A stretch of 20,113 nt of DNA from a virus. Positions within the stretch are counted from its first letter, which is position 1; each line of letters starts with the position of its first letter. Where the stretch lies: the IMG/VR virus record IMGVR_UViG_3300020459_000091, positions 1 through 20,113 of that record; one strand, written 5' to 3'. Below are positions 1,792-18,214 of the stretch, piece by piece. The translations under genes and the position numbers were made by a program. The notes under the pieces were generated by a model. The model saw nothing but the letters and a program-made list of their open reading frames with translations, searched no databases and was not told the origin of the DNA.

Positions 1792-2468
1792 TGAATCAAC
1801 AACCGATCCTAAATTTATTAAATAGAAGACAGCACGTTATGGCCTACGATACAGAGGACATACCTGAAAAACAATTGATTGAAGATTTATTGTGGAAAGC
1901 ATGGAAAGTAACGCCATCAAAGAATAATTTTATGCCATACCATTGTAATGTATTAGGTCCTGATAAGGTAAATGAAAAACACTCTATATGGATGAAAAGT
2001 GTAAAGAATAAAAAACACATAAATGAAAAAAACATTAAAGATCACAAAGAAGAAGGATACAATCCTTATTTTGAACATATAAGTACAGCACCTTATCTAT
2101 TAGTTTTTACACAAAGAGTTTGTGAACCTAATGAGTACTATAGAAAAAGAATAGAGGGTGGTGACTATTACGAACAAATGCACGAAGACCAGGTACAATC
2201 AATGTTAAGAACTACTACCGTAGAAGTAGGAATGTGGATGGCTAATTTATCAGCCTTTGCGTTAGAGAAAGGTCTAAATACATCTACCATAGCATGTTTT
2301 CCATACAAACCTATGTCAGCATGGGGAGATTTACCTTGGGTAAAATATCCTGTTGTATTGTTAGGTAGTATAGGTAAGGCAAAAGAATTTCGTAGAGAAA
2401 GTATGAGTGATATTGAAAAGAAAGACGACAAGAAACCAGAACCAGAAACGGTAATAAGATGGATTTAA
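1791..2468 (+). CDS. Nitroreductase-like flavoprotein
   Basis: A 225-residue protein with the pattern of the nitroreductase (FMN-dependent oxidoreductase) fold. An N-terminal RRQHVMAYDTEDIPEKQL resembles the family's RRSxRxFxxxxIPxE start, and TPSKNNFMPYH corresponds to the PSxxNxQPW flavin-binding stretch. Near the C-terminus, VEVGMWMANLSAFALEKGL and the LLGSIGKAKE segment match the usual helix and the closing L-G-x-x-G motif. The substrate cannot be read from the sequence. It starts in a TAATG overlap with nrdB and shares 10 nt with the next gene, so it is in the nucleotide-reduction operon and could take part in redox or cofactor supply (inference). An insertion rich in Lys, His and Glu around residues 70-95 is unlike typical members. 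Confidence 0.7.
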   Translation: MNQQPILNLLNRRQHVMAYDTEDIPEKQLIEDLLWKAWKVTPSKNNFMPYHCNVLGPDKVNEKHSIWMKSVKNKKHINEKNIKDHKEEGYNPYFEHISTAPYLLVFTQRVCEPNEYYRKRIEGGDYYEQMHEDQVQSMLRTTTVEVGMWMANLSAFALEKGLNTSTIACFPYKPMSAWGDLPWVKYPVVLLGSIGKAKEFRRESMSDIEKKDDKKPEPETVIRWI

Positions 2469-3007
2469 AACCTACTACAATTATTATGCTTATTGACTTT
2501 GAAGGACATCCTTTATTAGGTTCAGAATTTGTAAACAATCAACGTTTTTCTACATTGGCTTCACTACTAAATCCTGTACGAGATAGACCTCTTTTTATTA
2601 TATCAAATCATAATCCTGATAGAGATATGAAGACAGAGGAAGTTGCAAAAATTGTAAGATTAGAAAACAGACACATTTGGTTAACCGTGTCTGCTGATAA
2701 CCCTAATATCATAAGTATAGAGAAAGAGGTTGCTAGAAAAGGAATGAGTATAAAAAATGTTATAATTGGTGGCACAAATACATCTGGTTGTGTTCTAAAA
2801 AACAAACCATGTAGTGCTATGAATTGGGCAAACAAAGGTTATGATGTACAAATATTAGCAACTATGTGTGCTAATTATCAGATAACTGGTGTTAACGCTA
2901 TAGAACAAAACCAAAACTCTTTAGCAATTGTGTGGCGTGAGGTCTCACAAGCAAATATGTTTGATAAAATAAGTTACGTAAGGGAGCATGAATGTCAGAT
3001 AACGTAA
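2459..3007 (+). CDS. Isochorismatase-like (cysteine hydrolase fold) protein, paralogue A
   Basis: A 182-residue protein with landmarks of the isochorismatase/nicotinamidase fold: the first strand IIMLIDFEGH with the acidic residue D13, and the nucleophile strand VIIGGTNTSGCV with C111, followed by the NKGYDV strand. The lysine of the usual Asp-Lys-Cys triad is not evident; the corresponding region is RHIWLTVSADNP, so hydrolase activity is doubtful. Two relatives lie at 15394 and 15966 and share the LIDFxG start, the IIGG-x-x-x-x-GC motif and a late MCAxYxxxG motif. The ATG overlaps the nitroreductase gene by 10 nt. Fold assignment is inferred from motifs; the substrate is unknown. Confidence 0.6.
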   Translation: MDLKPTTIIMLIDFEGHPLLGSEFVNNQRFSTLASLLNPVRDRPLFIISNHNPDRDMKTEEVAKIVRLENRHIWLTVSADNPNIISIEKEVARKGMSIKNVIIGGTNTSGCVLKNKPCSAMNWANKGYDVQILATMCANYQITGVNAIEQNQNSLAIVWREVSQANMFDKISYVREHECQIT

Positions 3008-8710: not shown

Positions 8711-9043
8711 ATGTTTAAATCATTATTCGCAAATGACTCATTAAGAGTTGTAACTAAAGCAAAAAAAACTGAAACTAGAGGCAGAAAAACTTTGTCAAAA
8801 AGACAAAAAGTTTTGAACCTTTTATCAAAAGGTGAGTCTGTGACTTGGAAAACTCTAAGGAACAAATTTGATCTAGTATCACCTAGAGCACTTGTTGATA
8901 CTTTAAGAGCAGAAGGTAACATGATCTATGTTAATCAAACTGCTAAAGGTACTTCATACAGAATGGGTGTACCAACAAAAGCGATCATCGCTGCTGGTAT
9001 CAAAAAATTATATGGGACTCCGTTCGCATATAAAAATGCCTAA
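8711..9043 (+). CDS. Winged-helix/helix-turn-helix-like DNA-binding protein
   Basis: A 110-residue basic protein. After a Lys/Arg-rich lead (AKKTETRGRKTLSKRQKV), the segment VLNLLSKGESVTWKTLRNKF is a helix-turn-helix entry, then SPRALVDTLRAEGNMIYV is a recognition helix and wing; KGTSYRMG closes the wing. This layout occurs in a family I associate with marine T4-like phages. The start at 8711 has AAGGAGTGAATATA before it; in-frame starts at 8651 (TTG) and 8657 (ATG) would add a hydrophobic lead and overlap the hairpin. A transcription regulator or nucleoid-type protein is likely; the target is unknown. Confidence 0.68.
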   Translation: MFKSLFANDSLRVVTKAKKTETRGRKTLSKRQKVLNLLSKGESVTWKTLRNKFDLVSPRALVDTLRAEGNMIYVNQTAKGTSYRMGVPTKAIIAAGIKKLYGTPFAYKNA

Positions 9044-9054
9044 TACTCAACGAG

Positions 9055-9062
9055 TATAAATA
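9055..9062 (+). promoter_or_regulatory. T4-late-type promoter motif TATAAATA
   Basis: An exact TATAAATA, the T4 late -10 element, sits in the short gap after the winged-helix gene and 56 bases before the DUF6433-like gene. The overlapping inverted repeat TACTC-AAC-GAGTA (9044-9056) ends at its left edge. T4 late promoters need no -35 box, and none is seen. The gp33 gene at 17993 supports the existence of T4-type late transcription. Confidence 0.6.
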
Positions 9063-9070
9063 GATGTATA

Positions 9071-9090
9071 GGGGTAGGGAGACTTACCCC
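9071..9090 (+). terminator. GC-rich hairpin (terminator or 5'-end stabiliser)
   Basis: GGGGTA (9071-9076) pairs perfectly with TACCCC (9085-9090) across an 8-base loop and is followed by TTT. It stands between the TATAAATA motif and the gene at 9118. If transcription starts at the late promoter, the hairpin is at the very 5' end of that mRNA; otherwise it would end transcripts from upstream. Confidence 0.5.
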
Positions 9091-9117
9091 TTTACATAAC
9101 AACATGAGGAGGGCATT

Positions 9118-9606
9118 ATGCCAATGACAACATCACAATTACATGGTATGGATACAGCAGGTTCATCTGCTCCATTACTACATGAAATTCTAATCAAAGT
9201 AAACAACGCCAAAGACAAATCAAAAAAGATTGAAGTATTAAGAGAAAACGATTCAGTACCATTAAGACAAATACTGAAAGGTGCTTTTGATCCTAAAATC
9301 AAATGGGATTTACCAGAGGGTACGCCACCATACAAAGAGAATGACGCACCAGCAGGTACTGAACATACTACACTACACACAGAAGCCAGAAGATTATGGC
9401 ACTTTGTTGAAGGCGCTAACGATAAACTTACTAAATCCAAAAAAGAAATGATGTTTATTCAAATGCTAGAAGGCCTACATAAAGATGACGCTAAACTTTT
9501 AGTATCAGTTAAAGAGAAAGAACTGAACAAAGTATATAAAGGTTTAACTGATTCTGTGGTTAAAGACGCATTTAGATGGAACGAAGAATACAAAACCATC
9601 GGATAA
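9118..9606 (+). CDS. DUF6433-like phage protein
   Basis: A 162-residue protein behind GAGGAGG. The core (LHEILIKVNNAKDKSKKIEVL, DSVPLRQILKGAFDPKIKW, LPEGTPPYKENDAPAGTEHT, RRLWHFVEGAND, EMMFIQMLEGLHKDDAKLL, KGLTDSVVKDAFRWNE) matches what I recall of the DUF6433 family, a conserved protein of T4-like marine phages without a proven function. The late-type motif at 9055 suggests late expression and hence possibly a role in the virion or packaging (inference). It is the only gene of its transcription unit; a hairpin and a new promoter follow. Confidence 0.78.
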   Translation: MPMTTSQLHGMDTAGSSAPLLHEILIKVNNAKDKSKKIEVLRENDSVPLRQILKGAFDPKIKWDLPEGTPPYKENDAPAGTEHTTLHTEARRLWHFVEGANDKLTKSKKEMMFIQMLEGLHKDDAKLLVSVKEKELNKVYKGLTDSVVKDAFRWNEEYKTIG

Positions 9607-9641
9607 CATAAATATTATAGAGTGATTCTATAAAATTCAAC

Positions 9642-9675
9642 TATAGGGTGTATTGACAAGATGTCGCACCCTATA
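9642..9675 (+). terminator. Inverted repeat, possible terminator
   Basis: TATAGGGTG (9642-9650) and CACCCTATA (9667-9675) are perfect complements with a 16-base loop, 36 bases after the DUF6433-like gene. No T-run follows, so intrinsic termination is uncertain; an RNA processing or stability element is an alternative. The rest of the gap 9607-9776 holds a CATAAATA at 9607 and the promoter at 9714. Confidence 0.45.
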
Positions 9676-9713
9676 ACCCATTGATTTATCTACATTATTT
9701 GTCCATTTTTTGC

Positions 9714-9742
9714 TTGATTCATACACTAAATTATGTTATATT
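9714..9742 (+). promoter_or_regulatory. Sigma-70-type promoter with extended -10
   Basis: TTGATT (9714-9719), a 17-bp spacer ending TGT (extended -10), TATATT (9737-9742). The leading GC of GCTTGA is shared with several other promoters of this window. It drives the gene at 9777 with a leader of about 28 nt that contains AAAAAGGAG. Confidence 0.65.
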
Positions 9743-9776
9743 TAAGTATGAAAACAACAAAAAAGGAGAATATACT

Positions 9777-9971
9777 ATGTCAAAAGTAAAACAATGGGCA
9801 GAAAATACTGCTGAACAAAAAGTTGATAATATTATTGCCAAACTTACATCTGGCGAAATAGATAGATCAACTGCTAAGACTAAAATTATGAAAGTTGATA
9901 ATTTAGAATTAGTCGGAATTGATGAACATAATATTGATGAAGTTATTTACGAGGCTCATGCTAATGCGTAA
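9777..9971 (+). CDS. Hypothetical small helical protein
   Basis: A 64-residue acidic protein (MSKVKQWAENTAEQKVDNII..., KLTSGEIDRSTAKTKIMK, then an acidic helix DEHNIDEVIYEAHANA). The start is set by AAAAAGGAGAATATACT before ATG 9777; an upstream in-frame ATG at 9681 would place the promoter inside the gene and is rejected. It is the first gene behind the promoter at 9714, so it may be well expressed. The family is not recognised. Confidence 0.66.
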   Translation: MSKVKQWAENTAEQKVDNIIAKLTSGEIDRSTAKTKIMKVDNLELVGIDEHNIDEVIYEAHANA

Positions 9972-10278
9972 ATCATTTTTTATATTATTTTTATTATTCA
10001 TCTATACATGGTCTTGGTCTATATTCAATGTTGCCAAGGCTGATGATTATAACACGGCTGTTATAAGTCATGTTATATCAGAAAAAATTAAAGGCACAGA
10101 TATTGATACATCATATATTATGGAACAAGAAATAGAAAAACTTGCCCATAAATTTATGATTGATTCAGTTACTATATTACAGGCATACCTACCTCAAATA
10201 CTAGAGGCTATTGCTGCTGATTTAAGATTACAACTTGACGAGAAATATAAGGAACAAATTTTAAATGGTAACAACTAG
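9964..10278 (+). CDS. Exported protein with signal peptide
   Basis: A 104-residue protein. MRKSFFILFLLFIYTWSWSI followed by FNVAKA is a strong signal peptide with cleavage before DDYN. The mature part is about 78 residues and largely helical (VISHVISEKIKGTDIDTSYI, QEIEKLAHKFMIDSV, LPQILEAIAADLRLQL). ATG 9958 is also possible; 9964 has GAGG at a better distance. It should act in the periplasm or stay membrane-anchored; function unknown. It overlaps both neighbours. Confidence 0.68.
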   Translation: MRKSFFILFLLFIYTWSWSIFNVAKADDYNTAVISHVISEKIKGTDIDTSYIMEQEIEKLAHKFMIDSVTILQAYLPQILEAIAADLRLQLDEKYKEQILNGNN

Positions 10279-10678
10279 AAAATCTAAAGCACTAAAACTT
10301 AAAAGAAAGCTCAAACGTGAGCTGTCTGGTAAACGTAAATATATTACAACTTACAAAGACATAAAATCTTATTTTAAATTAGTTAATTCAGCACTATTTG
10401 ATAGTAAACTTTCACCTTTTGGTCAAGTAGAAATCAAAGACCTAAAAAGACAAAAATGTATAGGTCAAGTTGTAGTGCTAGAGTGGAAAAGAGCAGGTAC
10501 TAGATTGTACAAACTAGAGATGTTACCTTCTTATCCGAACAAAAAAGATTTCTTGGATACGCTAGTCCATGAAATGGTACATTTATATCAAATGCAGAAT
10601 TTAGGCGATACAGGTAACCACAATGATTTATTCTGGTCCTTTGAACCTAAAGTAAACTACATCGGTTTACGATTATAA
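10265..10678 (+). CDS. SprT-like zinc metalloprotease
   Basis: A 137-residue protein with the zinc-protease signature H102-E-M-V-H106 in DTLVHEMVHLYQ and a plausible third ligand H119 in NHNDLFW. This is the minimal SprT/Spartan-type layout: a basic N-terminal helix (KLKRKLKREL), a beta part, then HExxH and a nearby His. The zinc-ribbon tail of full-length SprT is absent. In cells, SprT-family enzymes degrade proteins crosslinked to DNA; in phages the substrate is unknown. The start overlaps the exported protein's end by 14 nt. Confidence 0.8.
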   Translation: MVTTRKSKALKLKRKLKRELSGKRKYITTYKDIKSYFKLVNSALFDSKLSPFGQVEIKDLKRQKCIGQVVVLEWKRAGTRLYKLEMLPSYPNKKDFLDTLVHEMVHLYQMQNLGDTGNHNDLFWSFEPKVNYIGLRL

Positions 10679-10692
10679 AAGAAAGTTATATT

Positions 10693-10968
10693 ATGAAAGG
10701 TGAGAAGAATCATATTGACGAGTGGTTACAAAAACAAATCAAAAAAGGTATTTCTATTATTGATAAAGTATTAGACAATAATATTAATGAGTGGGAATTG
10801 TATTACACAGGTCATTTACAAAGAGATATACTAACAAATTTCCCAGGCAGAACGAGTAAAAAGATTTTCAAAGGTTATAGAAACCATTTGAACAACGATA
10901 ACCTTGTGTTTATACAAAAGAAGTTTGAAGAACACGGTTATGAATATTATGTAAAGAGAGGTATATAA
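10693..10968 (+). CDS. Hypothetical basic protein
   Basis: A 91-residue protein, GAAAG before the ATG. Helical N-terminus (HIDEWLQKQIKKGISIIDKV), then WELYYTGHLQRDILTNFPGR and a Lys/Asn-rich part ending EEHGYEYYVKRGI. It could be a small nucleic-acid-binding protein by charge, but I recognise no family. Its stop overlaps the next ATG (TAATG). Confidence 0.62.
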   Translation: MKGEKNHIDEWLQKQIKKGISIIDKVLDNNINEWELYYTGHLQRDILTNFPGRTSKKIFKGYRNHLNNDNLVFIQKKFEEHGYEYYVKRGI

Positions 10969-11258
10969 TGAAACTATTGAAAAAACATAAAGAGATATTA
11001 AACGAATTAATCAAAGGTAAAGGCTACTGGAAGACGCCTACTGTACCTAAAGATTACAAAGACAAAACAAGTGTGCTAGATATACTTGTGCCATTGTACT
11101 TAAAAGGCTTATTGACGTTTCAAAGACAATACGACATACCACTAATCGGACCTAGTAACGAACACATGGTTAGATTCAAATGGTATGATGTTATGATTGA
11201 TAAAAAGAAAACAATTAAAGACTTAAAAAAGGTGGTTAAAGATGGGCAAATCGTATAA
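10968..11258 (+). CDS. Hypothetical protein, winged-helix-like in outline
   Basis: A 96-residue basic protein. The order of elements (LLKKHKEILNELIKGKGYWK, SVLDILVPLYLKGLLTFQRQ, then strands IPLIGPSNEHMVRFKWYDV) resembles a three-helix winged-helix domain in which LVPLYLKGLLTF is the third helix leading to a wing. This is an impression from secondary structure only. It overlaps the glucosaminidase gene by 17 nt. Confidence 0.58.
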   Translation: MKLLKKHKEILNELIKGKGYWKTPTVPKDYKDKTSVLDILVPLYLKGLLTFQRQYDIPLIGPSNEHMVRFKWYDVMIDKKKTIKDLKKVVKDGQIV

Positions 11259-11925
11259 TTGGCATAGACTCGCAAATCAGGCTTGGTTTTATACAAAGGT
11301 ATTTTTTACAGTATTAACTTTAATGGTTGCTGCTTATGCCTACGGTACATACAATCCTAATAAAACAGCAAAGGCTGTAGTCAACGAAGAACTTGATTTA
11401 TTCTATATGCAAAAGATAGAAGAAATGGGACTACAAGAGCCTGAATTTACATACAGCAATGATATTCAGTTTGTACGTGCTATGCACAAATGTATAAACT
11501 ATATTAATTTCTCCTTACCAAAAGATAAAAGAGTACCTTATGAGATGATTATAGGTCAGGCTGCGTTAGAGTCTGGTTGGGGTAACAGTAGATTTGCTAT
11601 GAAGGCAAACAATCTATTTGGTATAAGAACATGGAGTGAAGATACTCCACACCTCTTACCACAAGGCATAACAAAATGGCCAGGTTGGGGTGTGAGAGCT
11701 TTTGCTAGTAAATGCGATAGTGTAAAAGAATATGTAAGATTACTAAACAACCATAATGCTTACAAAGAGTTTAGAGTATTAAGACAAAAGATGTTAGATA
11801 AAAATCAACAACTTGATTCTATACAACTTATCAAAACTTTAGATAAGTTTTCTACTACAGCAGATTATGACAAAAGAGTTATAAGAATGATAAAGAAAAT
11901 AAGAAAACTAGAGGAGAATAAATGA
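11242..11925 (+). CDS. Membrane-anchored glucosaminidase (Bax/FlgJ-type)
   Basis: A 227-residue peptidoglycan hydrolase. Residues 17-36 (YTKVFFTVLTLMVAAYAYGT) form an N-terminal membrane span. The catalytic domain has the glucosaminidase hallmarks IIGQAALESGWGNSRFAMKA with catalytic E110, NLFGIRTW, and WGVRAFASKCDSVKEYVRLL with the closing NHNAYKEFR segment. It would cleave glycan strands from the outer face of the inner membrane. The single N-terminal span without an evident cleavage site could be a signal-anchor (SAR) arrangement, so it may be the endolysin or an envelope-entry enzyme. A small membrane protein gene overlaps its stop by 4 nt, as in a lysis cassette. Confidence 0.82.
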   Translation: MGKSYNWHRLANQAWFYTKVFFTVLTLMVAAYAYGTYNPNKTAKAVVNEELDLFYMQKIEEMGLQEPEFTYSNDIQFVRAMHKCINYINFSLPKDKRVPYEMIIGQAALESGWGNSRFAMKANNLFGIRTWSEDTPHLLPQGITKWPGWGVRAFASKCDSVKEYVRLLNNHNAYKEFRVLRQKMLDKNQQLDSIQLIKTLDKFSTTADYDKRVIRMIKKIRKLEENK

Positions 11926-12113
11926 CAGCAGAGTATGGAGTAGGAATGTTCTTTTTTGGCATGACAGTAACCCTTATAGGTTTTTTGATTGCCTTTATGG
12001 TTGTCAACTACAATCTAAAACAAGAACGTAAAAAGAAATACAAAGAAACAGGTCCATTAGCAGACTTGCACAAATACATGCCAGGTGTTAAATACGGAGA
12101 TGATTGTCAATGA
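11922..12113 (+). CDS. Small single-span membrane protein, holin/spanin candidate
   Basis: A 63-residue protein in an ATGA overlap with the glucosaminidase gene, GAGGAG before the ATG. Residues 8-28 (MFFFGMTVTLIGFLIAFMVV) form one membrane span, followed by a basic stretch (QERKKKYKE) that should stay in the cytosol. One span plus a charged tail directly after a peptidoglycan hydrolase suggests a pinholin-like or accessory lysis role; this is inference from position only. Confidence 0.64.
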   Translation: MTAEYGVGMFFFGMTVTLIGFLIAFMVVNYNLKQERKKKYKETGPLADLHKYMPGVKYGDDCQ

Positions 12114-12325
12114 GTTATGCTCAATCAGAAAATCACAAAAGAAACGTAAGAGTTTTAGCAGAGGGTGCTCAAGGCAAAAAGATGACACGTAAGGTTGATA
12201 CGTGGGAATACGAATCACTTGCAGATTGTATTAGATCAGATCAAGTGCCTGCTGAAGAAATTGCAGAAATATTTACTGATAAAGCATACTATAATTGGTA
12301 TAAAAAGAAGTATTTTACAGCTTGA
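12110..12325 (+). CDS. Conserved-looking small phage protein
   Basis: A 71-residue protein. The pattern NHKRNVRVLAEGAQGKKMT, KVDTWEYESLADCIRSDQVP, AEEIAEIFTDKAYYNWYKKK looks like a small family common in marine T4-like phages, function unknown. I choose ATG 12110 over TTG 12104; it overlaps the previous stop (ATGA). The last codon and stop run into the -35 box of the next promoter. Confidence 0.66.
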   Translation: MSYAQSENHKRNVRVLAEGAQGKKMTRKVDTWEYESLADCIRSDQVPAEEIAEIFTDKAYYNWYKKKYFTA

Positions 12326-12350
12326 CATTGCAGTAAAATTGATATATAAT
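12322..12350 (+). promoter_or_regulatory. Consensus sigma-70 promoter
   Basis: A perfect TTGACA (12322-12327), 17 bp, TATAAT (12345-12350), preceded by GC as in other promoters here. The -35 box overlaps the stop codon of the preceding gene. Only 7 bases separate the -10 box from the ATG at 12358, so transcription should start at or next to that codon. Confidence 0.82.
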
Positions 12351-12357
12351 AGACCCT

Positions 12358-12540
12358 ATGATACATGAAGAAGACATAAAAAGACAAGAAGACCCAAAGA
12401 TTAGAAGACTCAAGGCGTTAGCAAAAGCATGTGCTAATGCTCAACTTGACTCTTTCAAAAATTTATGGTATAATAAACTTATGCAACTTGCTAAACAATA
12501 CAACATGACGGACTATGTTATGAGAAAGCTGATACACTAA
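12358..12540 (+). CDS. Hypothetical protein with apparently leaderless start
   Basis: A 60-residue basic, helical protein (IHEEDIKRQEDPKIRRLKAL, ACANAQLDSFKNLWYNKLMQ). No ribosome binding site can precede ATG 12358 on the mRNA because the -10 box ends 7 bases upstream. An in-frame ATG at 12481 (residue 42) again follows a TATAAT box by 6 bases, which would give a 19-residue product. The stop overlaps the next ATG (TAATG). Family unknown. Confidence 0.58.
   Translation: MIHEEDIKRQEDPKIRRLKALAKACANAQLDSFKNLWYNKLMQLAKQYNMTDYVMRKLIH
12446..12474 (+). promoter_or_regulatory. Intragenic sigma-70-type promoter with extended -10
   Basis: TTGACT (12446-12451), a 17-bp spacer ending in TGG (extended -10), TATAAT (12469-12474), inside the 60-residue gene. 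It would add transcription of the gene at 12540 and the sufE region. An ATG follows the -10 box by 6 bases. Confidence 0.5.
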
Positions 12541-13136
12541 TGAATATATTTTACGTAGATAAAAATCCAAAGACAGCAGCCAAGATGATGTGTGATAAAC
12601 ATATTATCAAAATGATACTAGAGTCTGCTCAAATGCTATGTACAGCAAAACGTGTACTTGATGGCACAGAATATTTTGATACTACAAAGAATGGTCGTAA
12701 GATAAAAAGATGGCGACTAGATAACTCTAATGAAGAAGCAATCATATACAAGGCAGGTTGGCTAGGTCACCCTAGTACACAATGGGTACTAAAGTCAGCA
12801 TACAACTATATGTGGTTGTTCAATCACTTCATAGCACTTAACGAAGAATACAAATTAAGATGGCAAAAAGATACAGACCATGTATCAATAACTAAACTTG
12901 CTGATCTACTAAAACACCCACCTAAAAATGCACCACTAAATGCAATTCAAACAGACGCTACACCAGCAATGCCAGATCATTGTAAGATACCAGGTGACGT
13001 TGTTGGCTCATACAGAAAGTATTACATACTAGAGAAAAGAAGATTTGCCAAGTGGGAAAAACATGGTGCAGTTATGCCTGATTGGTATGCTCAAGGAATT
13101 GCAGATGATAAAACAACGAATACAGAGCAAGGGTGA
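12540..13136 (+). CDS. Phage protein of the family often annotated pyrimidine-dimer glycosylase-like
   Basis: A 198-residue protein. The start MNIFYVDKNPKTAAKMMCDK followed by HIIKMILESAQMLCTAKRVLDG, later GHPSTQWVLKSAYNYMWLFN and PAMPDHCKIPGDVVGSYRKY, matches a family frequent in T4-like cyanophages that databases often label pyrimidine dimer DNA glycosylase. It is not similar to T4 DenV at the N-terminus as I remember it, so a repair function is unproven. Conserved Asp, Lys and His in the first 25 residues look like active-site residues. It starts in a TAATG overlap, and the next gene begins inside its last 32 nt. Confidence 0.6.
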   Translation: MNIFYVDKNPKTAAKMMCDKHIIKMILESAQMLCTAKRVLDGTEYFDTTKNGRKIKRWRLDNSNEEAIIYKAGWLGHPSTQWVLKSAYNYMWLFNHFIALNEEYKLRWQKDTDHVSITKLADLLKHPPKNAPLNAIQTDATPAMPDHCKIPGDVVGSYRKYYILEKRRFAKWEKHGAVMPDWYAQGIADDKTTNTEQG

Positions 13137-13509
13137 TGACCTTAAAATGTTGCAAGGCCATGATAGACTTGCATATTTAATTGACATTGCCAAAGACGTA
13201 GAATCATTACCACAAGAAGTAAAAACAGATCAAAATAGAATACGAGGTTGTGCTAGTAATCTATGGTTGATTGGTGGAGCAAAAGAAGATAATACAATGA
13301 TATATAAAATAGACGCTGACGCATTTATAACAAAAGGCACAGCGAAGTTAGTAACAGACCTAGTCAATGGTTGTCCTAGAGATGAAGTGGCTGCTCTTAC
13401 TATAGAGGATTTCTTACCTTTAGGTGTTAGAGAACTACTTACAATGCAAAGACAGAATGGATTAGGGTCATTAATACAGAGGATAGTAGATATAGCAAAT
13501 ACTAAATAG
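13105..13509 (+). CDS. SufE-like sulfur acceptor for Fe-S cluster assembly
   Basis: SufE takes sulfur from the cysteine desulfurase SufS on a conserved cysteine and passes it to the Suf scaffold. This 134-residue protein shows the family signature: GHDRLAYLIDIAKDVESLP, then NRIRGCASNLWL with the acceptor C49, then GTAKLVTDLVNGCPRDEVAAL and LGVRELLTMQRQNGLGSLIQ. Length equals that of E. coli SufE. Start 13105 has AAGGAA 6 nt upstream; ATG 13147 would cut off the first helix. No SufS or SufBCD gene is near, so it must work with host partners, perhaps to keep Fe-S supply running in infection (inference). Confidence 0.88.
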   Translation: MIKQRIQSKGDDLKMLQGHDRLAYLIDIAKDVESLPQEVKTDQNRIRGCASNLWLIGGAKEDNTMIYKIDADAFITKGTAKLVTDLVNGCPRDEVAALTIEDFLPLGVRELLTMQRQNGLGSLIQRIVDIANTK

Positions 13510-13513
13510 CAAT

Positions 13514-13894
13514 ATGAATAATGTAAGAGATTTTATACAATTAAATATAAACTTTTTGAATGATATTCAAAGTTACCATTGGCAAACAGAGTCATATTCT
13601 GAGCATGAAAGCACAGGTGAATATTATGAAAAGTTTAGTAAATTAAATGACGAATTAGTAGAAACGTGGCAAGGCAAAGTAGGCACAAGAATTAACTTTA
13701 GTGCTGAATTAAGACCTGGCATAATGAATTACGCTGACAATGGTCAAGTTAGAGGTGAAGTACAAAAACAAGTAGCACGAATAACGAAGATTGCAGAAAA
13801 CAGCAAAGTAAAAGGACAAATGGATTTAGAAAGCATACTAGAAGATATGCTTATGGCGACTAATCAATTATTGTTTCATCTAACGCTTAAATAA
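13514..13894 (+). CDS. DUF5856-like (ferritin/Dps-like) protein
   Basis: A 126-residue helical protein. The QSYHWQTESYSEHESTGEYY segment, with His and Glu at spacings used by Dps and ferritin-like helices, and the following FSKLNDELVETWQGKVG match what I recall of the DUF5856 family of T4-like marine phages. Iron or DNA binding is suggested by the Dps-like motif but not shown. It begins 4 bases after sufE, so the two are certainly co-transcribed. Confidence 0.7.
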   Translation: MNNVRDFIQLNINFLNDIQSYHWQTESYSEHESTGEYYEKFSKLNDELVETWQGKVGTRINFSAELRPGIMNYADNGQVRGEVQKQVARITKIAENSKVKGQMDLESILEDMLMATNQLLFHLTLK

Positions 13895-13895
13895 A

Positions 13896-14210
13896 ATGCC
13901 CATATACACATTTACAAATAAAAGAACTGGTAAAGAGTTTACCGAGATGATGACTATTGACGAGATGGAAAAGTATCTTAAAAAGAACAAACACATCAAA
14001 CAAAATATATCAGGCATAAGAATTGTTGCAGGCGTAAGTGGTGCTAGTTATAGATCAGATAGTGGTTGGAAAGAAACATTATCAAAAGTAGCAGAAGCAC
14101 ACCCAATGAGTGCTTTAGCAAATGAGATGGGAACAAAGTCAACAAAACAAATCAAAACAGAGCAAGTGATGAAAAAACACAAGGCTAGACAAAATGCAAA
14201 AAATAAATAA
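13896..14210 (+). CDS. Conserved-looking phage protein (FmdB-like start without cysteines)
   Basis: A 104-residue basic protein. MPIYTFTNKRTGKEFTEMM resembles the beginning of FmdB-type zinc ribbons (MPxYxF...C), but there is no cysteine, so it cannot bind zinc that way. The rest (IDEMEKYLKKNKHIKQ, IRIVAGVSGASYRSDSGWKE, TLSKVAEAHPMSALANEMG) has the look of a family shared by marine T4-like phages. The C-terminus is Lys/Gln-rich. It starts one base after the preceding stop. The late-type motif at 14202 lies in its last codons. Confidence 0.66.
   Translation: MPIYTFTNKRTGKEFTEMMTIDEMEKYLKKNKHIKQNISGIRIVAGVSGASYRSDSGWKETLSKVAEAHPMSALANEMGTKSTKQIKTEQVMKKHKARQNAKNK
14202..14209 (+). promoter_or_regulatory. 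T4-late-like promoter motif AATAAATA
   Basis: AATAAATA, one base off the T4 late -10 element, at the end of the preceding gene. The expected start of transcription, about 6 bases on, falls on the GGGG (14215-14218) that opens the structured leader. Support comes from the same arrangement at 9055 and 17361; alone the motif would be weak in such AT-rich DNA. Confidence 0.4.
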
Positions 14211-14216
14211 TATAGG

Positions 14217-14287
14217 GGTGCAGAGCGAGCAACTGAACAACAACGGTCGTATACCAGAGTCTAATAAGTCAATCCGCTCATTGCACC
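14217..14287 (+). promoter_or_regulatory. Structured leader RNA with long-range stem
   Basis: GGTGCA (14217-14222) pairs with TGCACC (14282-14287) and GAGCG (14223-14227) with CGCTC (14275-14279), leaving only a 2-base bulge (AT, 14280-14281): an 11-bp stem closing a 47-base loop that contains a minor GGT/ACC hairpin (14245-14255). The region is clearly more GC-rich than its surroundings and ends 10 bases before the AAGGAG of the gene at 14310. It is not a tRNA: no D or T arm can be drawn. It could be a 5'-end stabiliser, a regulator of the gene at 14310, or a small RNA. Confidence 0.5.
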
Positions 14288-14309
14288 TACCTAAACAAGG
14301 AGAAAACTA

Positions 14310-14699
14310 ATGGCAGACATACCTGATTTTATGAGGGAGTTTGATACCGATGTAGATTATGGTTTTACTCCTGTATCAAAAAAACCTGCTGACGACACGC
14401 CAGCAATAGACACAAAGGTTATAGAAGACTCTAATTTAGAGATTGCAAAAGTCAAATCAGATGTAGGCGATATTAAGTCTATGATGAATGAGATTATGCA
14501 AATTGTAGCAGAGAAAGACTCTGTTAGCAAAGAGATACAGGACGCTGACGTATCGGCGAGATTTAAAGAGATTGAAAAGACTATACTACCGTTTTTGTAT
14601 AATCTTTCAAAAACCAATGAACCTTACATACATTGGCCTAATAGAGGACCAATCATTAAGGCTCAGATGGATAAAATATTAAAACTTACAAGGGGATAA
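14310..14699 (+). CDS. Conserved-looking phage protein, possibly structural
   Basis: A 129-residue acidic protein behind AAGGAG. N-terminus ADIPDFMREFDTDVDYGFTP, a Pro/Asp/Ala linker, a coiled-coil middle (VKSDVGDIKSMMNEIMQIVA, ARFKEIEKTILPFLYNLSK) and a conserved-looking end YIHWPNRGPIIKAQMDKILK. I associate this layout with a protein found in marine T4-like phages, function unknown. The late-type motif and structured leader in front suggest late expression and a possible role in particle assembly (inference). Confidence 0.68.
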   Translation: MADIPDFMREFDTDVDYGFTPVSKKPADDTPAIDTKVIEDSNLEIAKVKSDVGDIKSMMNEIMQIVAEKDSVSKEIQDADVSARFKEIEKTILPFLYNLSKTNEPYIHWPNRGPIIKAQMDKILKLTRG

Positions 14700-14700
14700 T

Positions 14701-14874
14701 ATGTTAGAAATAAAAGCTCATCACAAAGAATTAAAACGAGCGGTGAATGAAATTGAAGATAAAAGAAAACAAGACAGATCAAATAAATTATGGTACGATA
14801 TAAGAACCTTAAAGAAAATAAAACTTATAGCAAAGGATAAATTAAATGCAACTAAGCAAAAACTTTTCACTTAA
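14701..14874 (+). CDS. Small DUF465/YdcH-like helical protein
   Basis: A 57-residue basic protein starting 2 bases after the previous stop. It is a helical hairpin: EIKAHHKELKRAVNEIEDKR, then KLWYDIRTLKKIKLIAKDKL. The second helix, L-K-K-x-K-L-x-x-K-D-x-L, is the signature of the DUF465/YdcH family of small proteins. Function of that family is unclear. The M15 peptidase gene begins inside it (29 nt overlap). Confidence 0.6.
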   Translation: MLEIKAHHKELKRAVNEIEDKRKQDRSNKLWYDIRTLKKIKLIAKDKLNATKQKLFT

Positions 14875-15316
14875 AGAACTAACTGCTTCTCAAACAGCAG
14901 ATAGACATGGTATTAGTAATAATCCAAGCGAAGATCATATGGATAATTTAAAGAAACTATGTGATAATGTTCTACAAAAAGTTAGAGATCACTATGGCAA
15001 GGTAGTATCAGTATCTAGTGGGTACAGATCACCCGAGTTATGTGTGAAGATAGGATCATCAATGAAATCACAGCATGCCAAAGGGCAAGCTGCGGACTTT
15101 GAAATCTTTGGCATTGCGAATGCTGATCTAGCAAAATATATTATTGATAGTTTAGATTTTGACCAATTGATATTAGAATTTCACAATCCAGAGGAACCTA
15201 ATAGCGGATGGATTCATTGTTCATATAAGAACAAAGAAGAAAACAGAAAACAAGTATTAAGAGCATACAGAAATGATGATGGTAAGACGGTATACGAACC
15301 GTATGACCCTAGTTGA
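14846..15316 (+). CDS. M15-type peptidoglycan peptidase (endolysin candidate)
   Basis: A 156-residue D-Ala-D-Ala carboxypeptidase/endopeptidase-like protein of the M15A_3 type. Motifs in order: FSLKELTASQTADR and the N-terminal helix, VSSGYRSPELC (58-66), SQHAKGQAADFEI with zinc ligands H77 and D84, and SGWIHCSY with H124 as third zinc ligand. All needed residues are present. It would cut peptide cross-links in the cell wall; no signal peptide is visible, so a holin or tail delivery is needed. ACTTT-free start: the ATG lies within the preceding gene. After the UGA stop the frame stays open for 25 codons (see findings). Confidence 0.86.
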   Translation: MQLSKNFSLKELTASQTADRHGISNNPSEDHMDNLKKLCDNVLQKVRDHYGKVVSVSSGYRSPELCVKIGSSMKSQHAKGQAADFEIFGIANADLAKYIIDSLDFDQLILEFHNPEEPNSGWIHCSYKNKEENRKQVLRAYRNDDGKTVYEPYDPS

Positions 15317-15394
15317 GCTGTTGAACGTCTTAATGATGACAAGAAAATAGAGCAAGACAAGATCATTGACTTGTATATGCAAAAAGGTATATAA
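15317..15394 (+). other. In-frame 25-codon extension after the M15 stop codon
   Basis: In the frame of the M15 peptidase the UGA at 15314-15316 is followed by 25 sense codons with coding-like composition (AVERLNDDKKIEQDKIIDLY...), ending with TAA at 15392-15394, which overlaps the ATG of the next gene in the same TAATG junction used elsewhere in this window. It has no good start codon of its own. Either UGA is read through, or it is a recent premature stop. Confidence 0.45.
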
Positions 15395-15966
15395 TGAATA
15401 CTCTTATATTATTAATAGATTTTATTGGACACCAAGTCCTTTCTGAAAACTACATAAACAATAGAAGATACCAAGAGGTACAGAAAATACTATCTGATCC
15501 TCGTATTGACAAGTCAAAAATAATATTTTGTACCACAGACTCAAGCCGTGTTGACGTGAGGTTAAACGAGCTTGAGTTTATGGCAAGCAACCTAGACATT
15601 AAGTTTTTTAAATACGAAGATGATTGGACCTTTGATATGTTAAGTGATAAACTCGCAGAGTCATTTGATTTTGATATGAATCCTAACAACACTCAAATAA
15701 TCATAGGTGGATGTAATCTAGCAGGTTGTGTAACAAAAGCAACTAAACCTATGAACGCAATCGCAGCCTGTGAAGCAGGTTATCCCACTACAATATACTT
15801 ACCAATGTGTGCTGAATATGAGCAACCTGGTATTAATGATGTTGAAAGAATGATGATGGGATTAGTAGAGGTCTATAAACAAATTAAAAAATATAGAGCA
15901 TTTAAAATTACACTTGAAAACGATTTTAGATACTTAAACTTACCTAGAACACATGGAACTCTATAA
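15394..15966 (+). CDS. Isochorismatase-like protein, paralogue B
   Basis: A 190-residue member of the three-gene set in this window. It begins NTLILLIDFIGHQVLSENYI (D9 in the first strand, as in paralogue A), has the nucleophile strand IIIGGCNLAGCV with C112, and continues with NAIAACEAGYPTTIYLPMCA. Lysines K70 or K73 (LDIKFFKYEDDW) could complete an Asp-Lys-Cys triad, but this is not certain. A start motif D-F-x-G-H replaces the D-x-Q-x-x-F of ordinary isochorismatases, so substrate choice probably differs. AAAAAGG precedes the ATG, and the stop overlaps paralogue C (TAATG). Confidence 0.62.
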   Translation: MNTLILLIDFIGHQVLSENYINNRRYQEVQKILSDPRIDKSKIIFCTTDSSRVDVRLNELEFMASNLDIKFFKYEDDWTFDMLSDKLAESFDFDMNPNNTQIIIGGCNLAGCVTKATKPMNAIAACEAGYPTTIYLPMCAEYEQPGINDVERMMMGLVEVYKQIKKYRAFKITLENDFRYLNLPRTHGTL

Positions 15967-16610
15967 TGGATAATACAATAATATTATTAATAGATTTTGA
16001 AGGTTTAAAAGGTTTACAGGATCAAAACTATTTAAAAAACAGATACAATGCTCTTATGGATATACTACAACAAAGAAGTATTGATAGAGAAAAATGTATT
16101 GTGATTTTTAACACTTACAATGTTGATACAGAAAAAAATATAATAGAAGATGAACAATTAAGAGAAGTATGTAAATTTGCATGGCTTGAAAAATGGAATG
16201 TGTATAACACAACAAAAGAAACTGGTGTTGGTTTAACAGACATAGACATAGAGTATTTTATAGACCTTATGAAAGAAAGAAGACCAGAATTTAAAATTGA
16301 TCCTGCAACAACAAAAATAGTAATAGGTGGTACAGAAACAGCAGGTTGTTGTTTAGTAAACAAAAAACTAGGTGCCTTACATTGGGTGAAAAGAGGCTAT
16401 AGAACAACAATGTACTTGCCAATGATGGCTGAATATTCAAGTATAGGACACGATTGGTATACAAAACAACAAAGTGGTTTTGCTAACTTCTGGAAAGAGA
16501 TATGCAATAATCCTGACCCTATGATATTCAAAAAATTATCTATAAGAAGTAATTTTAACTCACTTACACACGATTTACCGTGGACTTTAGAAAGAATAAG
16601 GCCATTATAG
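15966..16610 (+). CDS. Isochorismatase-like protein, paralogue C
   Basis: A 214-residue protein, the longest of the set. NTIILLIDFEGLKGLQDQNY carries D10; KIVIGGTETAGCCLVNKKLG carries C128 (next to a second Cys); GALHWVKRGYRTTMYLPMMA and EYSSIGHD follow, aligned with MNWANKGYDV and ANYQITGVN of paralogue A. K76 or K84 could be the triad lysine. It has a larger insertion between the first acidic residue and the nucleophile than its relatives. It sits in tandem with paralogue B and closes the operon; a promoter starts at the stop codon. Confidence 0.62.
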   Translation: MDNTIILLIDFEGLKGLQDQNYLKNRYNALMDILQQRSIDREKCIVIFNTYNVDTEKNIIEDEQLREVCKFAWLEKWNVYNTTKETGVGLTDIDIEYFIDLMKERRPEFKIDPATTKIVIGGTETAGCCLVNKKLGALHWVKRGYRTTMYLPMMAEYSSIGHDWYTKQQSGFANFWKEICNNPDPMIFKKLSIRSNFNSLTHDLPWTLERIRPL

Positions 16611-16611
16611 C

Positions 16612-16640
16612 TTGACAATCTTGTAATAATCTGATATAAT
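16612..16640 (+). promoter_or_regulatory. Consensus sigma-70 promoter with extended -10
   Basis: A perfect TTGACA (16612-16617), a 17-bp spacer ending TGA (extended -10), TATAAT (16635-16640), beginning right after the preceding stop codon. It drives the nuclease gene at 16672 with a leader of about 25 nt containing GGAAAGG. Confidence 0.85.
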
Positions 16641-16671
16641 GATTATATAAATTTATACGGAAAGGTATATT

Positions 16672-17373
16672 ATGTTTAAACATGTTAAATTGAATGAAGA
16701 AGTATTGCCTAAATCTTTAGGTGTGAAAGGCAAGAATCAAAACGGTGTAAGATATTATACTATTGATGGTGTTAATATGCCTTCCGTTACATCTATACTA
16801 GGACAAATACCAGAAAAACAAGCAGGTCTACAGGCATGGCGAAATGCAGTTGGTGAGAAAATGGCTAACTACATATCAACGTCTGCTGTCAATAGAGGTA
16901 AGACAACTCATACCTTAATTGAGAATCACCTGAAGAACGAAGACGAGAAGTCAGTAGGTATAACTGCTGTTACACCACTAGGACTTTTTAGAATAATCAA
17001 ACCATATCTTGCTAGACTAGACAACATACATTGCCTAGAAGAATACCTATACTCAAAAGAAATAGGTGTTGCAGGTCAAGTAGATTGTATTGCTGAATAT
17101 AGAGGCAAACTATCTGTTGTTGATTTTAAGACCTCTACAAAGAGAAGGGATGCTAATTACAATTATGCTAACTTTTTACAATGCTCGGCATATGCAAAAA
17201 TGTATGAAGAGCTATACCCAAATCACAAAATAGAACAAACTGTTATATTAGCCACATGTGAAGACGGTTTTGTACAAGAATGGATACATACCGAAGACAA
17301 AATCAAAGAGCACCAAGAGCTGTTTTATAAGCACACACAGGAGTTTTTTGAGAGAAATAATATAAATAGTTAG
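16672..17373 (+). CDS. PD-(D/E)XK nuclease, MGME1-like exonuclease
   Basis: A 233-residue nuclease of the RecB/MGME1 type. Motifs: the N-terminal MPSVTSILGQIP, the helix with NRGKTTHTLIENHL (H80), E130 in YSKEIGVAGQVDCIAE with D138, the core D151-x-K153 in LSVVDFKTS, and Q170 in FLQCSAYAKMYEE. All catalytic positions are present. Family members act on single-stranded or end-processed DNA. T4-like marine phages carry this nuclease near replication genes; here it precedes gp33 and gp59, so a role in replication or recombination is likely. Confidence 0.84.
   Translation: MFKHVKLNEEVLPKSLGVKGKNQNGVRYYTIDGVNMPSVTSILGQIPEKQAGLQAWRNAVGEKMANYISTSAVNRGKTTHTLIENHLKNEDEKSVGITAVTPLGLFRIIKPYLARLDNIHCLEEYLYSKEIGVAGQVDCIAEYRGKLSVVDFKTSTKRRDANYNYANFLQCSAYAKMYEELYPNHKIEQTVILATCEDGFVQEWIHTEDKIKEHQELFYKHTQEFFERNNINS
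17361..17368 (+). promoter_or_regulatory. T4-late-type promoter motif TATAAATA
   Basis: An exact TATAAATA in the last codons of the nuclease gene, 20 bases before the ATG of the exported protein. Its position directly before a separate gene, and the hairpin that follows at once, match the arrangement at 9055. Confidence 0.5.
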
Positions 17374-17387
17374 ACCAAAAGGTCAAC
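17369..17387 (+). repeat. Hairpin covering the ribosome binding site
   Basis: GTT-A-GACC (17369-17376) pairs with GGTC-AAC (17381-17387): 7 bp with one bulged A and an AAAA loop. The GG of the likely ribosome binding site AAAAGG (17377-17382) lies in the 3' arm, and the hairpin ends one base before the ATG, so folding would hide the start region. Confidence 0.5.
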
Positions 17388-17388
17388 T

Positions 17389-17724
17389 ATGAAAAAACTA
17401 TTAACACTAATAACACTATTATTCGCTACAAGCACATTTGCTGAAGATACACTTAAATACGATTTTCAATGGATGCACGTACCAGTAGTTTGTGGTACAT
17501 CACCAGAGGTAATGCGTTACCTTAAAGACAATGATTTCATATTGAAGAGCGTATCTGTAGGTAGAGAAGGCGCCTCAGCGACAGGCGATCCATCTTATTT
17601 TGTTGCTTACTACATGAATGAAAAAGGCGATCAATCTGTTGCCGCTATAACTTCACCTTCAGGACATGAAACTTGTATGATGTATAGAAGTTTTGATTTA
17701 CAAACACCTGGTGATAAAGTTTAA
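17389..17724 (+). CDS. Exported protein with signal peptide
   Basis: A 111-residue protein. MKKLLTLITLLFATSTFA is a classic Sec signal peptide, with cleavage before EDTLKY. The mature 93 residues contain two cysteines (VVCGTSPEVMRYL, ETCMMYRSF) that could form a disulfide, and a beta-rich end (YFVAYYMNEKGDQSVAAITS). The LLFATS-x-x-AED cleavage region closely matches that of the gene at 6500. It is preceded by a late-type motif and a hairpin, and followed by a new promoter, so it may form its own transcription unit. Function unknown. Confidence 0.76.
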   Translation: MKKLLTLITLLFATSTFAEDTLKYDFQWMHVPVVCGTSPEVMRYLKDNDFILKSVSVGREGASATGDPSYFVAYYMNEKGDQSVAAITSPSGHETCMMYRSFDLQTPGDKV

Positions 17725-17727
17725 AGC

Positions 17728-17756
17728 TTGACAAATTAGTCTAATTGAGATATAAT
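17728..17756 (+). promoter_or_regulatory. Consensus sigma-70 promoter
   Basis: A perfect TTGACA (17728-17733), 17 bp, TATAAT (17751-17756), three bases after the preceding stop and again preceded by GC. It should drive the operon from 17781 through gp33 and gp59; the leader of about 18 nt contains GTGAGG. Confidence 0.85.
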
Positions 17757-17780: not shown

Positions 17781-17993
17781 ATGAGCGATAATAATATGCC
17801 TATGGGGCAAGATACACACGACCATGATATGACTTATGAAAATGAGCAATCAATGGTGACTATACCGTTACGTGAGTACGATAAATTAAAAGCACAAGGT
17901 CAGTACATAACAGACCCGAGTCTAATTTCTATAATAGATAAAATAGAAGAACTAACAAGAGCATTAAGAAAACACATAGTTAGAAAACTATAA
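17781..17993 (+). CDS. Hypothetical small protein upstream of gp33
   Basis: A 70-residue protein. The N-terminal third is polar with Met, His and Asp (NNMPMGQDTHDHDMTYENEQ), followed by MVTIPLREYDKLKAQGQYI and a helix SLISIIDKIEELTRALRKHI that could form a coiled coil. It is the first gene of the gp33-gp59 operon. In T4 the corresponding neighbour of gene 33 is dsbA, but I see no resemblance that would justify that name. The stop overlaps gp33 (TAATG). Confidence 0.66.
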   Translation: MSDNNMPMGQDTHDHDMTYENEQSMVTIPLREYDKLKAQGQYITDPSLISIIDKIEELTRALRKHIVRKL

Positions 17994-18214
17994 TGTTGAT
18001 GAATAGTAAAAAGTTTGCTCAAATAATAGAGGCAATAGTAAAAGAGAAAAGGATGTCCTATCTGGATGCCGTACTCAAATATTGTGAAGAAAATGATATT
18101 GACACAGCGTCTGTAGGTCCTTTAATTAACAAGTCACTAAAAGAAAAGATAAAAGAAGAGGCAGAAAAACTAAACTTGGTTGAACGATCAAGCACAGCGA
18201 TCTTACCTATATGA
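17993..18214 (+). CDS. 33: gp33-like late-transcription co-activator
   Basis: In T4, gp33 binds RNA polymerase and the sliding clamp and makes late transcription depend on replication. This 73-residue protein (T4 gp33 is longer, about 110) shows the compact core I know from marine T4-like gp33: FAQIIEAIVKEKRMSYLDAV, LKYCEENDIDTASVGPLINK, SLKEKIKEEAEKLNLVE, and a hydrophobic C-terminal end ILPI that could be the clamp-binding tail. Its place directly before gene 59 repeats the T4 neighbourhood. TATAAATA motifs elsewhere in the window fit a working late-transcription system. Confidence 0.75.
   Translation: MLMNSKKFAQIIEAIVKEKRMSYLDAVLKYCEENDIDTASVGPLINKSLKEKIKEEAEKLNLVERSSTAILPI

What the first reader, a model, noticed from the sequence alone, without database searches (positions are those of the whole stretch)
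9055..17387. Recurring module: late-type promoter motif followed at once by a hairpin
At 9055 (TATAAATA, hairpin 9071-9090), 14202 (AATAAATA, stem 14217-14287) and 17361 (TATAAATA, hairpin 17369-17387) the T4-late-like motif is followed within 0-8 bases by a stem that would be at or near the 5' end of the mRNA, and then by a ribosome binding site and a gene. In AT-rich DNA the motif alone is weak evidence, but the repeated arrangement, and gp33 in the same window, make a common late-leader design likely. The hairpins may protect late mRNAs from decay.
Basis: partly seen in the sequence, partly recalled or inferred. Interest (0 to 1): 0.62.

Follow-up and report, generated by a model that had tools for sequence, protein, structure and literature searches.

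The report
Late phage promoters with unrelated hairpins
A virus of the ocean bacterium SAR11 uses T4-style late promoters, but the three hairpins beside them are not one shared design: one looks like T4's known trick for keeping a gene silent until late in infection, one sits at the very start of a message, and one belongs to an unrelated conserved RNA structure.

Summary
The window is a fragment of a T4-like pelagimyophage (relatives HTVC008M, Mosig). The motif is a real late-promoter signal: intergenic TATAAATA is 4-6 times commoner than permuted words in three related genomes. The 'common late-leader design' fails: 75 intergenic motifs there show no excess of downstream hairpins over 134 controls (p = 0.84).

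The sites are three different things. Site 17361 fits the T4 gene e/soc/49/I-TevI switch: a conserved sigma-70 promoter upstream reads through the nuclease gene, that mRNA hides the RBS and AUG of gene 17389 in a hairpin (-9.9 kcal/mol), and the late start falls inside the 5' arm (-1.0). Site 9055 (DUF6433 gene) has a G+C-rich stem 0-3 nt from the predicted late start; its sequence has turned over among relatives while pairing is kept, as expected of a 5'-end stabiliser. Site 14202 is probably not a promoter; its stem closes a ~70-nt covarying RNA inside a conserved small ORF, absent from Rfam.

Start sites, translation and half-lives are inferred, not measured.

The parts
9043..9057 (+). Upstream hairpin ATACTC-AAC-GAGTAT abutting and overlapping the late motif, just after the stop of gene 8711
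   Evidence: Different but complementary arms in relatives
9055..9062 (+). T4-type late promoter motif TATAAATA; predicted start 9068
   Evidence: (T/C)ATAAATA kept in relatives while flanks change
9070..9091 (+). Hairpin at the predicted 5' end of the DUF6433 late mRNA
   Evidence: z -5.5; stem sequence turned over with pairing kept
9118..9606 (+). DUF6433 / phrog_461 gene, function unknown
   Evidence: Pfam PF20025 E 1e-44; PHROG
9642..9675 (+). Hairpin after the DUF6433 gene, no T run
   Evidence: -16.8 kcal/mol, z -3.9
14202..14209 (+). AATAAATA overlapping the stop codon of gene 13896-14210; probably not a promoter
   Evidence: TCTAAATA in close relatives
14194..14310 (+). Small ORF (38 codons) containing the structured element; its stop overlaps the ATG of gene 14310
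   Evidence: Same frame open in 52 of 52 variants analysed
14213..14287 (+). Conserved structured RNA element; outer helix 14218-14227 with 14275-14286
   Evidence: 6 of 10 pairs change on both sides, 97% of cells paired; model match 97 bits; no Rfam match
16612..16640 (+). Consensus sigma-70 promoter TTGACA-17-TATAAT of the nuclease gene, source of readthrough mRNA
   Evidence: 12 of 12; present in relatives
16672..17373 (+). PD-(D/E)XK nuclease gene
   Evidence: PHROG 298 E 6e-56; Pfam PDDEXK_1
17361..17368 (+). T4-type late promoter motif TATAAATA; predicted start 17374
   Evidence: kept as (T/C)ATAAATA in relatives
17366..17390 (+). Inverted repeat that hides SD (17378-17382) and AUG (17389) in readthrough mRNA only
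   Evidence: -9.9 versus -1.0 kcal/mol; variants keep pairing
17389..17724 (+). Gene for a 111-aa protein with a signal-peptide-like start, function unknown
   Evidence: No PHROG or Pfam match
17993..18214 (+). gp33, late-transcription coactivator
   Evidence: Pfam PF16805 E 3e-24

Best explanation
Two genuine T4-type late promoters (9055, 17361) each carry a selected hairpin with a different job, and the third site is unrelated. Site 17361 is a timing switch of the T4 gene e kind: early sigma-70 mRNA of the nuclease gene runs into gene 17389 and folds its Shine-Dalgarno and AUG into a hairpin, so the protein is not made early; late RNA polymerase (gp55/gp33/gp45) starts inside the 5' arm, so the late mRNA cannot form the hairpin and is translated. 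Site 9055 gives the DUF6433 late mRNA a G+C-rich stem 0-3 nt from its 5' end with a free ribosome binding site, which most likely slows 5'-end-dependent decay. Site 14202 is a fortuitous motif beside a conserved structured RNA. Shown by computation: the motif is concentrated between genes, the hairpins are conserved with compensatory change, an early-type promoter lies upstream of 17389 with no terminator-like site between. Inferred: start sites, translational silencing, mRNA protection.
For: Late motif: intergenic 22/14/21 versus 3.9/3.3/3.4 for permuted words in three genomes. 17361: z -4.7; readthrough -9.9 versus late -1.0 kcal/mol; four arm variants keep pairing in relatives, readthrough -9.9 to -10.8; perfect sigma-70 promoter at 16612-16640 with matching sites in all relatives examined; same geometry as T4 e, soc, 49 and I-TevI (PMC3014915, PMC2988022), and the same scan recovers T4 e, 49 and I-TevII. 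9055: z -5.5; unrelated stem sequences in relatives, stem 0-3 nt from the predicted start; own arms pair better than swapped arms (-15.9 versus -9.0). 14202: motif not conserved; covariation.
Against: No start site is mapped. The same scan gave only a low score for T4 soc, and a genome-wide excess of RBS-hiding hairpins at late motifs is weak. At 9055 the lowest 4-5 bp of the stem lie before the predicted start, which suggests selection also on readthrough RNA, and a second conserved hairpin abuts the motif from upstream. Few independent changes support the 17361 hairpin.
Confidence: 0.6

Rival explanations
1. One reading: one common late-leader module in which each late promoter is followed at once by a 5' hairpin that protects late mRNA.
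For: Fits 9055 and its relatives; a few other late leaders have hairpins, e.g. the HTVC008M tail sheath gene at 66784.
Against: No excess of hairpins after 75 motif sites, p = 0.84; many late motifs lie 5 nt before the ATG; at 17361 the late RNA would lack the 5' arm; 14202 motif not conserved.
Confidence: 0.07
2. Site 9055 is an RNA-processing site: two tandem hairpins around an A/U-rich linker are cut (RNase E type), giving the upstream mRNA a 3' hairpin and DUF6433 mRNA a 5' hairpin.
For: Both hairpins keep pairing while sequences change; the downstream stem extends upstream of the predicted start; the linker is single-stranded A/U.
Against: ATAAATA is invariant among variants with a leader hairpin and equals the late-promoter word enriched genome-wide, more than a cleavage linker needs.
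Confidence: 0.25
3. The inverted repeat at 17366-17390 is a DNA operator for a repressor of the late promoter, not an RNA hairpin.
For: It overlaps promoter, start and RBS; I-TevI operators overlap T4 late promoters (PMC2988022).
Against: Variants change both arms in ways that keep pairing, with differing loop lengths and bulges, unlike a fixed operator sequence.
Confidence: 0.1
4. Chance structure in AT-rich DNA.
For: General intergenic leaders are as structured as those after late motifs.
Against: 0 of 200 shuffles fold as well at 9063-9100 and 17366-17400; pairing kept through sequence turnover.
Confidence: 0.05

Closest known systems
T4 late promoters (8-bp TATAAATA box; gp55, gp33, gp45)
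   Same: Same word, concentrated between genes, before baseplate, sheath and portal genes in HTVC008M; gp33 in the window, gp55 and gp45 in the relative
   Different: T as well as C at the first base is common; ATG exactly 5 nt after the box is frequent (likely leaderless), unlike T4
T4 gene e / soc / 49 / I-TevI late-promoter-in-hairpin translational switch
   Same: Site 17361: RBS and AUG hidden in readthrough mRNA, late start inside the 5' strand, early promoter upstream
   Different: Different gene (unknown 111-aa protein), different phage family and host; repression not measured
5'-terminal stabilising stem-loops of bacterial mRNAs (ompA type)
   Same: Site 9055: G+C-rich stem close to the predicted 5' end with a free RBS
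   Different: Phage late mRNA; half-life not measured; stem extends upstream of the predicted start
Aeromonas phage 25 seg43 leader hairpin
   Same: Very stable hairpin just upstream of an unsequestered RBS (PMC2988022)
   Different: Its role is also unknown; homing endonuclease gene; no homology tested

Membership tests
T4-type late promoter | 8-bp TATAAATA consensus, concentrated between genes | tested here: met
   22/14/21 intergenic versus 3.9/3.3/3.4 for permuted words
T4-type late promoter | Transcription starts about one helical turn downstream | not testable with these tools
   Only indirect: ATG peak at 5 nt after the box
T4-type late promoter | Phage encodes gp55, gp33 and gp45 | tested here: met
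   gp33 in the window; gp55 and gp45 annotated in HTVC008M
T4-type late promoter | Box kept at site 14202 | tested here: not met
   TCTAAATA in close relatives
T4 gene e-type translational switch (site 17361) | SD and/or AUG sequestered in a helix of longer transcripts | tested here: met
   Predicted fold 17366-17390, -9.9 kcal/mol
T4 gene e-type translational switch (site 17361) | Late promoter placed so that late RNA lacks the 5' strand | tested here: met
   By geometry, start assumed at 17374: -1.0 kcal/mol
T4 gene e-type translational switch (site 17361) | Upstream early or middle promoter with readthrough | tested here: met
   Sigma-70 consensus 16612-16640, no + strand terminator-like site between; readthrough itself not observed
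T4 gene e-type translational switch (site 17361) | Translation reduced from the long RNA | not testable with these tools
   Needs a reporter experiment
5'-terminal stabilising stem-loop (site 9055) | Stem within a few nt of the 5' end, RBS free | tested here: met
   0-3 nt in the window and 13 relatives, conditional on the assumed start
5'-terminal stabilising stem-loop (site 9055) | Longer mRNA half-life | not testable with these tools
   Needs an experiment
   75 motif sites versus 134 controls, p = 0.84

The most novel reading that the evidence does not exclude
The stem at 14217-14287 is the closing helix of an undescribed cis-acting RNA of pelagimyophages: a covarying outer helix around a nearly invariant core (and, in most relatives, a second hairpin), written into a translated small ORF that is fused in frame to a lipoprotein or ends on the next gene's start codon, and regulating that gene.
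Probability: 0.35. Interest if true: 0.65.

Novelty: new member of a known kind. Interest (0 to 1): 0.45.

Why it matters
A 2020 survey reported that prediction of middle and late promoters was unsuccessful in pelagimyophage genomes (PMC7029224); here the late word stands out clearly, so late units of abundant ocean phages can be delimited. Site 17361 would extend the T4 gene e timing device to phages of SAR11 and gives a precise, testable prediction. It also shows that 'promoter plus hairpin' in these compact genomes hides several unrelated devices, one of them possibly a new RNA element.

Tried and rejected
Rfam on the window: only a sub-threshold snoRNA match, taken as chance. Hairpin enrichment after late motifs: none. 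A genome-wide excess of RBS-hiding hairpins at late motifs: weak at best. The DUF6433 leader in cyanophages, HTVC008M and Melnitz: the gene follows its neighbour at once there, so the hairpin leader is peculiar to the window's clade. The 14213-14287 element as a mere late leader: rejected, motif not conserved. As a purely protein-level feature: disfavoured, since compensatory changes in the outer helix come with amino-acid changes and some synonymous sites outside the search pattern never vary. Its occurrence in bacteria: one hit, in a phage contig binned with a bacterial MAG. PHROG hits for the fused lipoprotein: only E about 0.1, one to an Rz-like spanin family; not used.
Full report
WHERE WE ARE. 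The window is a fragment of a T4-like myophage related to Pelagibacter phages HTVC008M and Mosig. Its own record is only the 20,113-base window, so genome-wide tests used a near relative, contig G001 (165,693 bases, L087-L095), and the complete genomes of HTVC008M (L081-L083) and Mosig (L084-L086). gp33 is at 17993-18214 (Pfam Trans_coact, E 3e-24).

THE MOTIF. TATAAATA (9055, 17361) and AATAAATA (14202) are as described. The word occurs only four times in the window, all on the + strand, against 10 expected on both strands. In the three genomes TATAAATA is found between called genes 22, 14 and 21 times, against means of 3.9, 3.3 and 3.4 for 55 permuted words, although only 5% of the DNA is intergenic; inside genes it is depleted (7, 7, 9 against 26-31) (genes called by a simple script). 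In HTVC008M the sites precede the DNA end protector, several baseplate wedge genes, the tail sheath and the portal gene. By sequence criteria this is a late promoter. A published survey could not detect late promoters in pelagimyophages (PMC7029224); the Melnitz paper listed 15 by a TATAAAT search (PMC9004378).

WHERE TRANSCRIPTION STARTS (inferred). T4 late RNA starts about one helical turn downstream of the box (PMC2988020). In these phages the ATG often follows the motif after exactly 5 nt: 4 sites in G001, 6 in HTVC008M, 4 in Mosig, 4 in the OM43 phage Melnitz-3, but 1 in T4 and 0-1 in each of four cyanophages, with 0 for the reversed pattern; a spacing of 8 nt gives 3 in all nine genomes. 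A start 6 nt after the motif would make these mRNAs leaderless. I use that start below; it is not mapped.

NO COMMON LEADER HAIRPIN. For 75 intergenic motif sites the 40 nt from the predicted start have mean z -0.12; 134 other intergenic leaders have -0.37 (one-sided p = 0.84); 7 of 75 versus 16 of 134 have z below -2. The proposed module is not a general design.

SITE 17361. The inverted repeat ATAGTT-A-GACC-AAAA-GGTC-AACTAT (17366-17390) starts in the last three bases of the motif and ends in the start codon; the Shine-Dalgarno (17378-17382) is in loop and 3' arm. Readthrough RNA folds at -9.9 kcal/mol (z -4.7), RNA from 17374 at -1.0. In relatives the motif stays (T/C)ATAAATA while the arms vary: GACC/GGTC with a bulge, TTAG/CTAA, TTAAG/CTTAA and a G-U version, readthrough -9.9 to -10.8, late -0.7 to -1.6. 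The nuclease gene upstream has a perfect TTGACA-17-TATAAT promoter at 16612-16640, with a matching site in every relative examined including HTVC008M and Mosig, and no terminator-like site lies between it and 17389 on that strand. This is the architecture of T4 genes e, soc, 49 and I-TevI, in which long early RNAs hide the RBS and late RNAs start within the 5' strand (PMC3014915, PMC2988022). The same scan recovers T4 e, 49 and I-TevII, though soc scores low. Another clear candidate is G001 91570, where a 14-bp repeat (z -5.9) brackets the late promoter and covers SD and AUG of a small gene.

SITE 9055. The predicted late RNA begins 0-3 nt before a G+C-rich stem in the window and in 13 relatives with the motif, although stem sequences differ: GGGGTAG/CTTACCCC, GGCGGC/GCCGCC, GAGGTC/GGCCTC, GTGGTC/GGCCAC, GGGCGT/ACGCCC. 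Own arms pair at -15.9 kcal/mol on average, arms swapped between lineages at -9.0, with one G-rich arm pairing well with several partners. The RBS lies outside. This suits a 5'-end stabiliser; stem-loops are known to protect bacterial mRNAs (reviewed in PMC7509114). Against a purely late role, the lowest 4-5 bp lie before the predicted start. A second hairpin (9043-9057), also conserved as structure, abuts the motif from upstream, so RNA processing is a live rival. The gene is DUF6433, found in 487 phage records, but in HTVC008M, Melnitz and cyanophages it follows its neighbour directly without such a leader.

SITE 14202. AATAAATA overlaps the stop of the upstream gene and reads TCTAAATA in close relatives. 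The stem, however, is the closing helix of an element found in over 100 stretches of viral contigs: 6 of 10 pairs show changes on both sides, 97% of cells pair, no shuffle reaches either value, and sliding the partners destroys the signal. Its core is nearly invariant; in most relatives a second hairpin follows. Part of that invariance is forced by the DNA search pattern, but some codons outside it are also fixed. The element lies in a small ORF, open in 52 of 52 variants analysed, while no other frame is always open (one variant outside that set, L102, has an in-frame TAA). The ORF is fused in frame to a lipoprotein in many relatives and ends on the next start codon in the window. Rfam has no match. 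A cis-regulatory RNA is the most novel reading; its function is not established.

CONCLUSION. Real late promoters; two real but different hairpin devices; one unrelated RNA element. All functional steps remain predictions.

Noticed in passing
HTVC008M 6267, 7549, 18914, 31119, 49747, 142347; G001 29246, 48795, 90928, 148125; Mosig and Melnitz-3 sites: Late motif exactly 5 nt before an ATG, 4-6 times per genome in SAR11 and OM43 phages but 0-1 in T4 and four cyanophages: probable leaderless late mRNAs.
   Followed up: partly
G001 134991-135055 (L093:14991-15055): A glutamine riboswitch (Rfam RF01739) begins 7 nt after a TATAAATA, so a late mRNA may start directly with a riboswitch; an 11-bp hairpin abuts the motif upstream.
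   Followed up: no
L088:3200-3486, L083:45103-45461, L086:11467-11805: tmRNA genes close to gp33 in G001, HTVC008M and Mosig; none detected in the window.
   Followed up: no
G001 14622 and 134991; HTVC008M 36494 and 69415; Mosig 45198; window 9055: Hairpins whose 3' arm abuts or overlaps the late motif from upstream; at other sites a terminator with a T run lies just before the late promoter.
   Followed up: partly
window 14194-14310 and relatives (L046, L131, L248 and others): Conserved small ORF carrying a structured RNA, fused in frame to a lipoprotein in many relatives; the sequence SEQLxxNGRIPES is highly conserved.
   Followed up: partly
window 2459-3007, 15394-15966, 15966-16610: Three proteins that start with the same LIDF(E/I)G pattern look like paralogues, two of them adjacent; no family match for the one tested.
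   Followed up: no
L248 (NZEU01000015.1): A contig of a Porticoccaceae MAG carries this pelagimyophage gene cluster and is probably a misbinned phage.
   Followed up: no
window 12322-12350, 16612-16640, 17728-17756: Three perfect sigma-70 promoters (TTGACA-17-TATAAT, 12 of 12) mark probable early operons, one just before the gp33 operon.
   Followed up: partly
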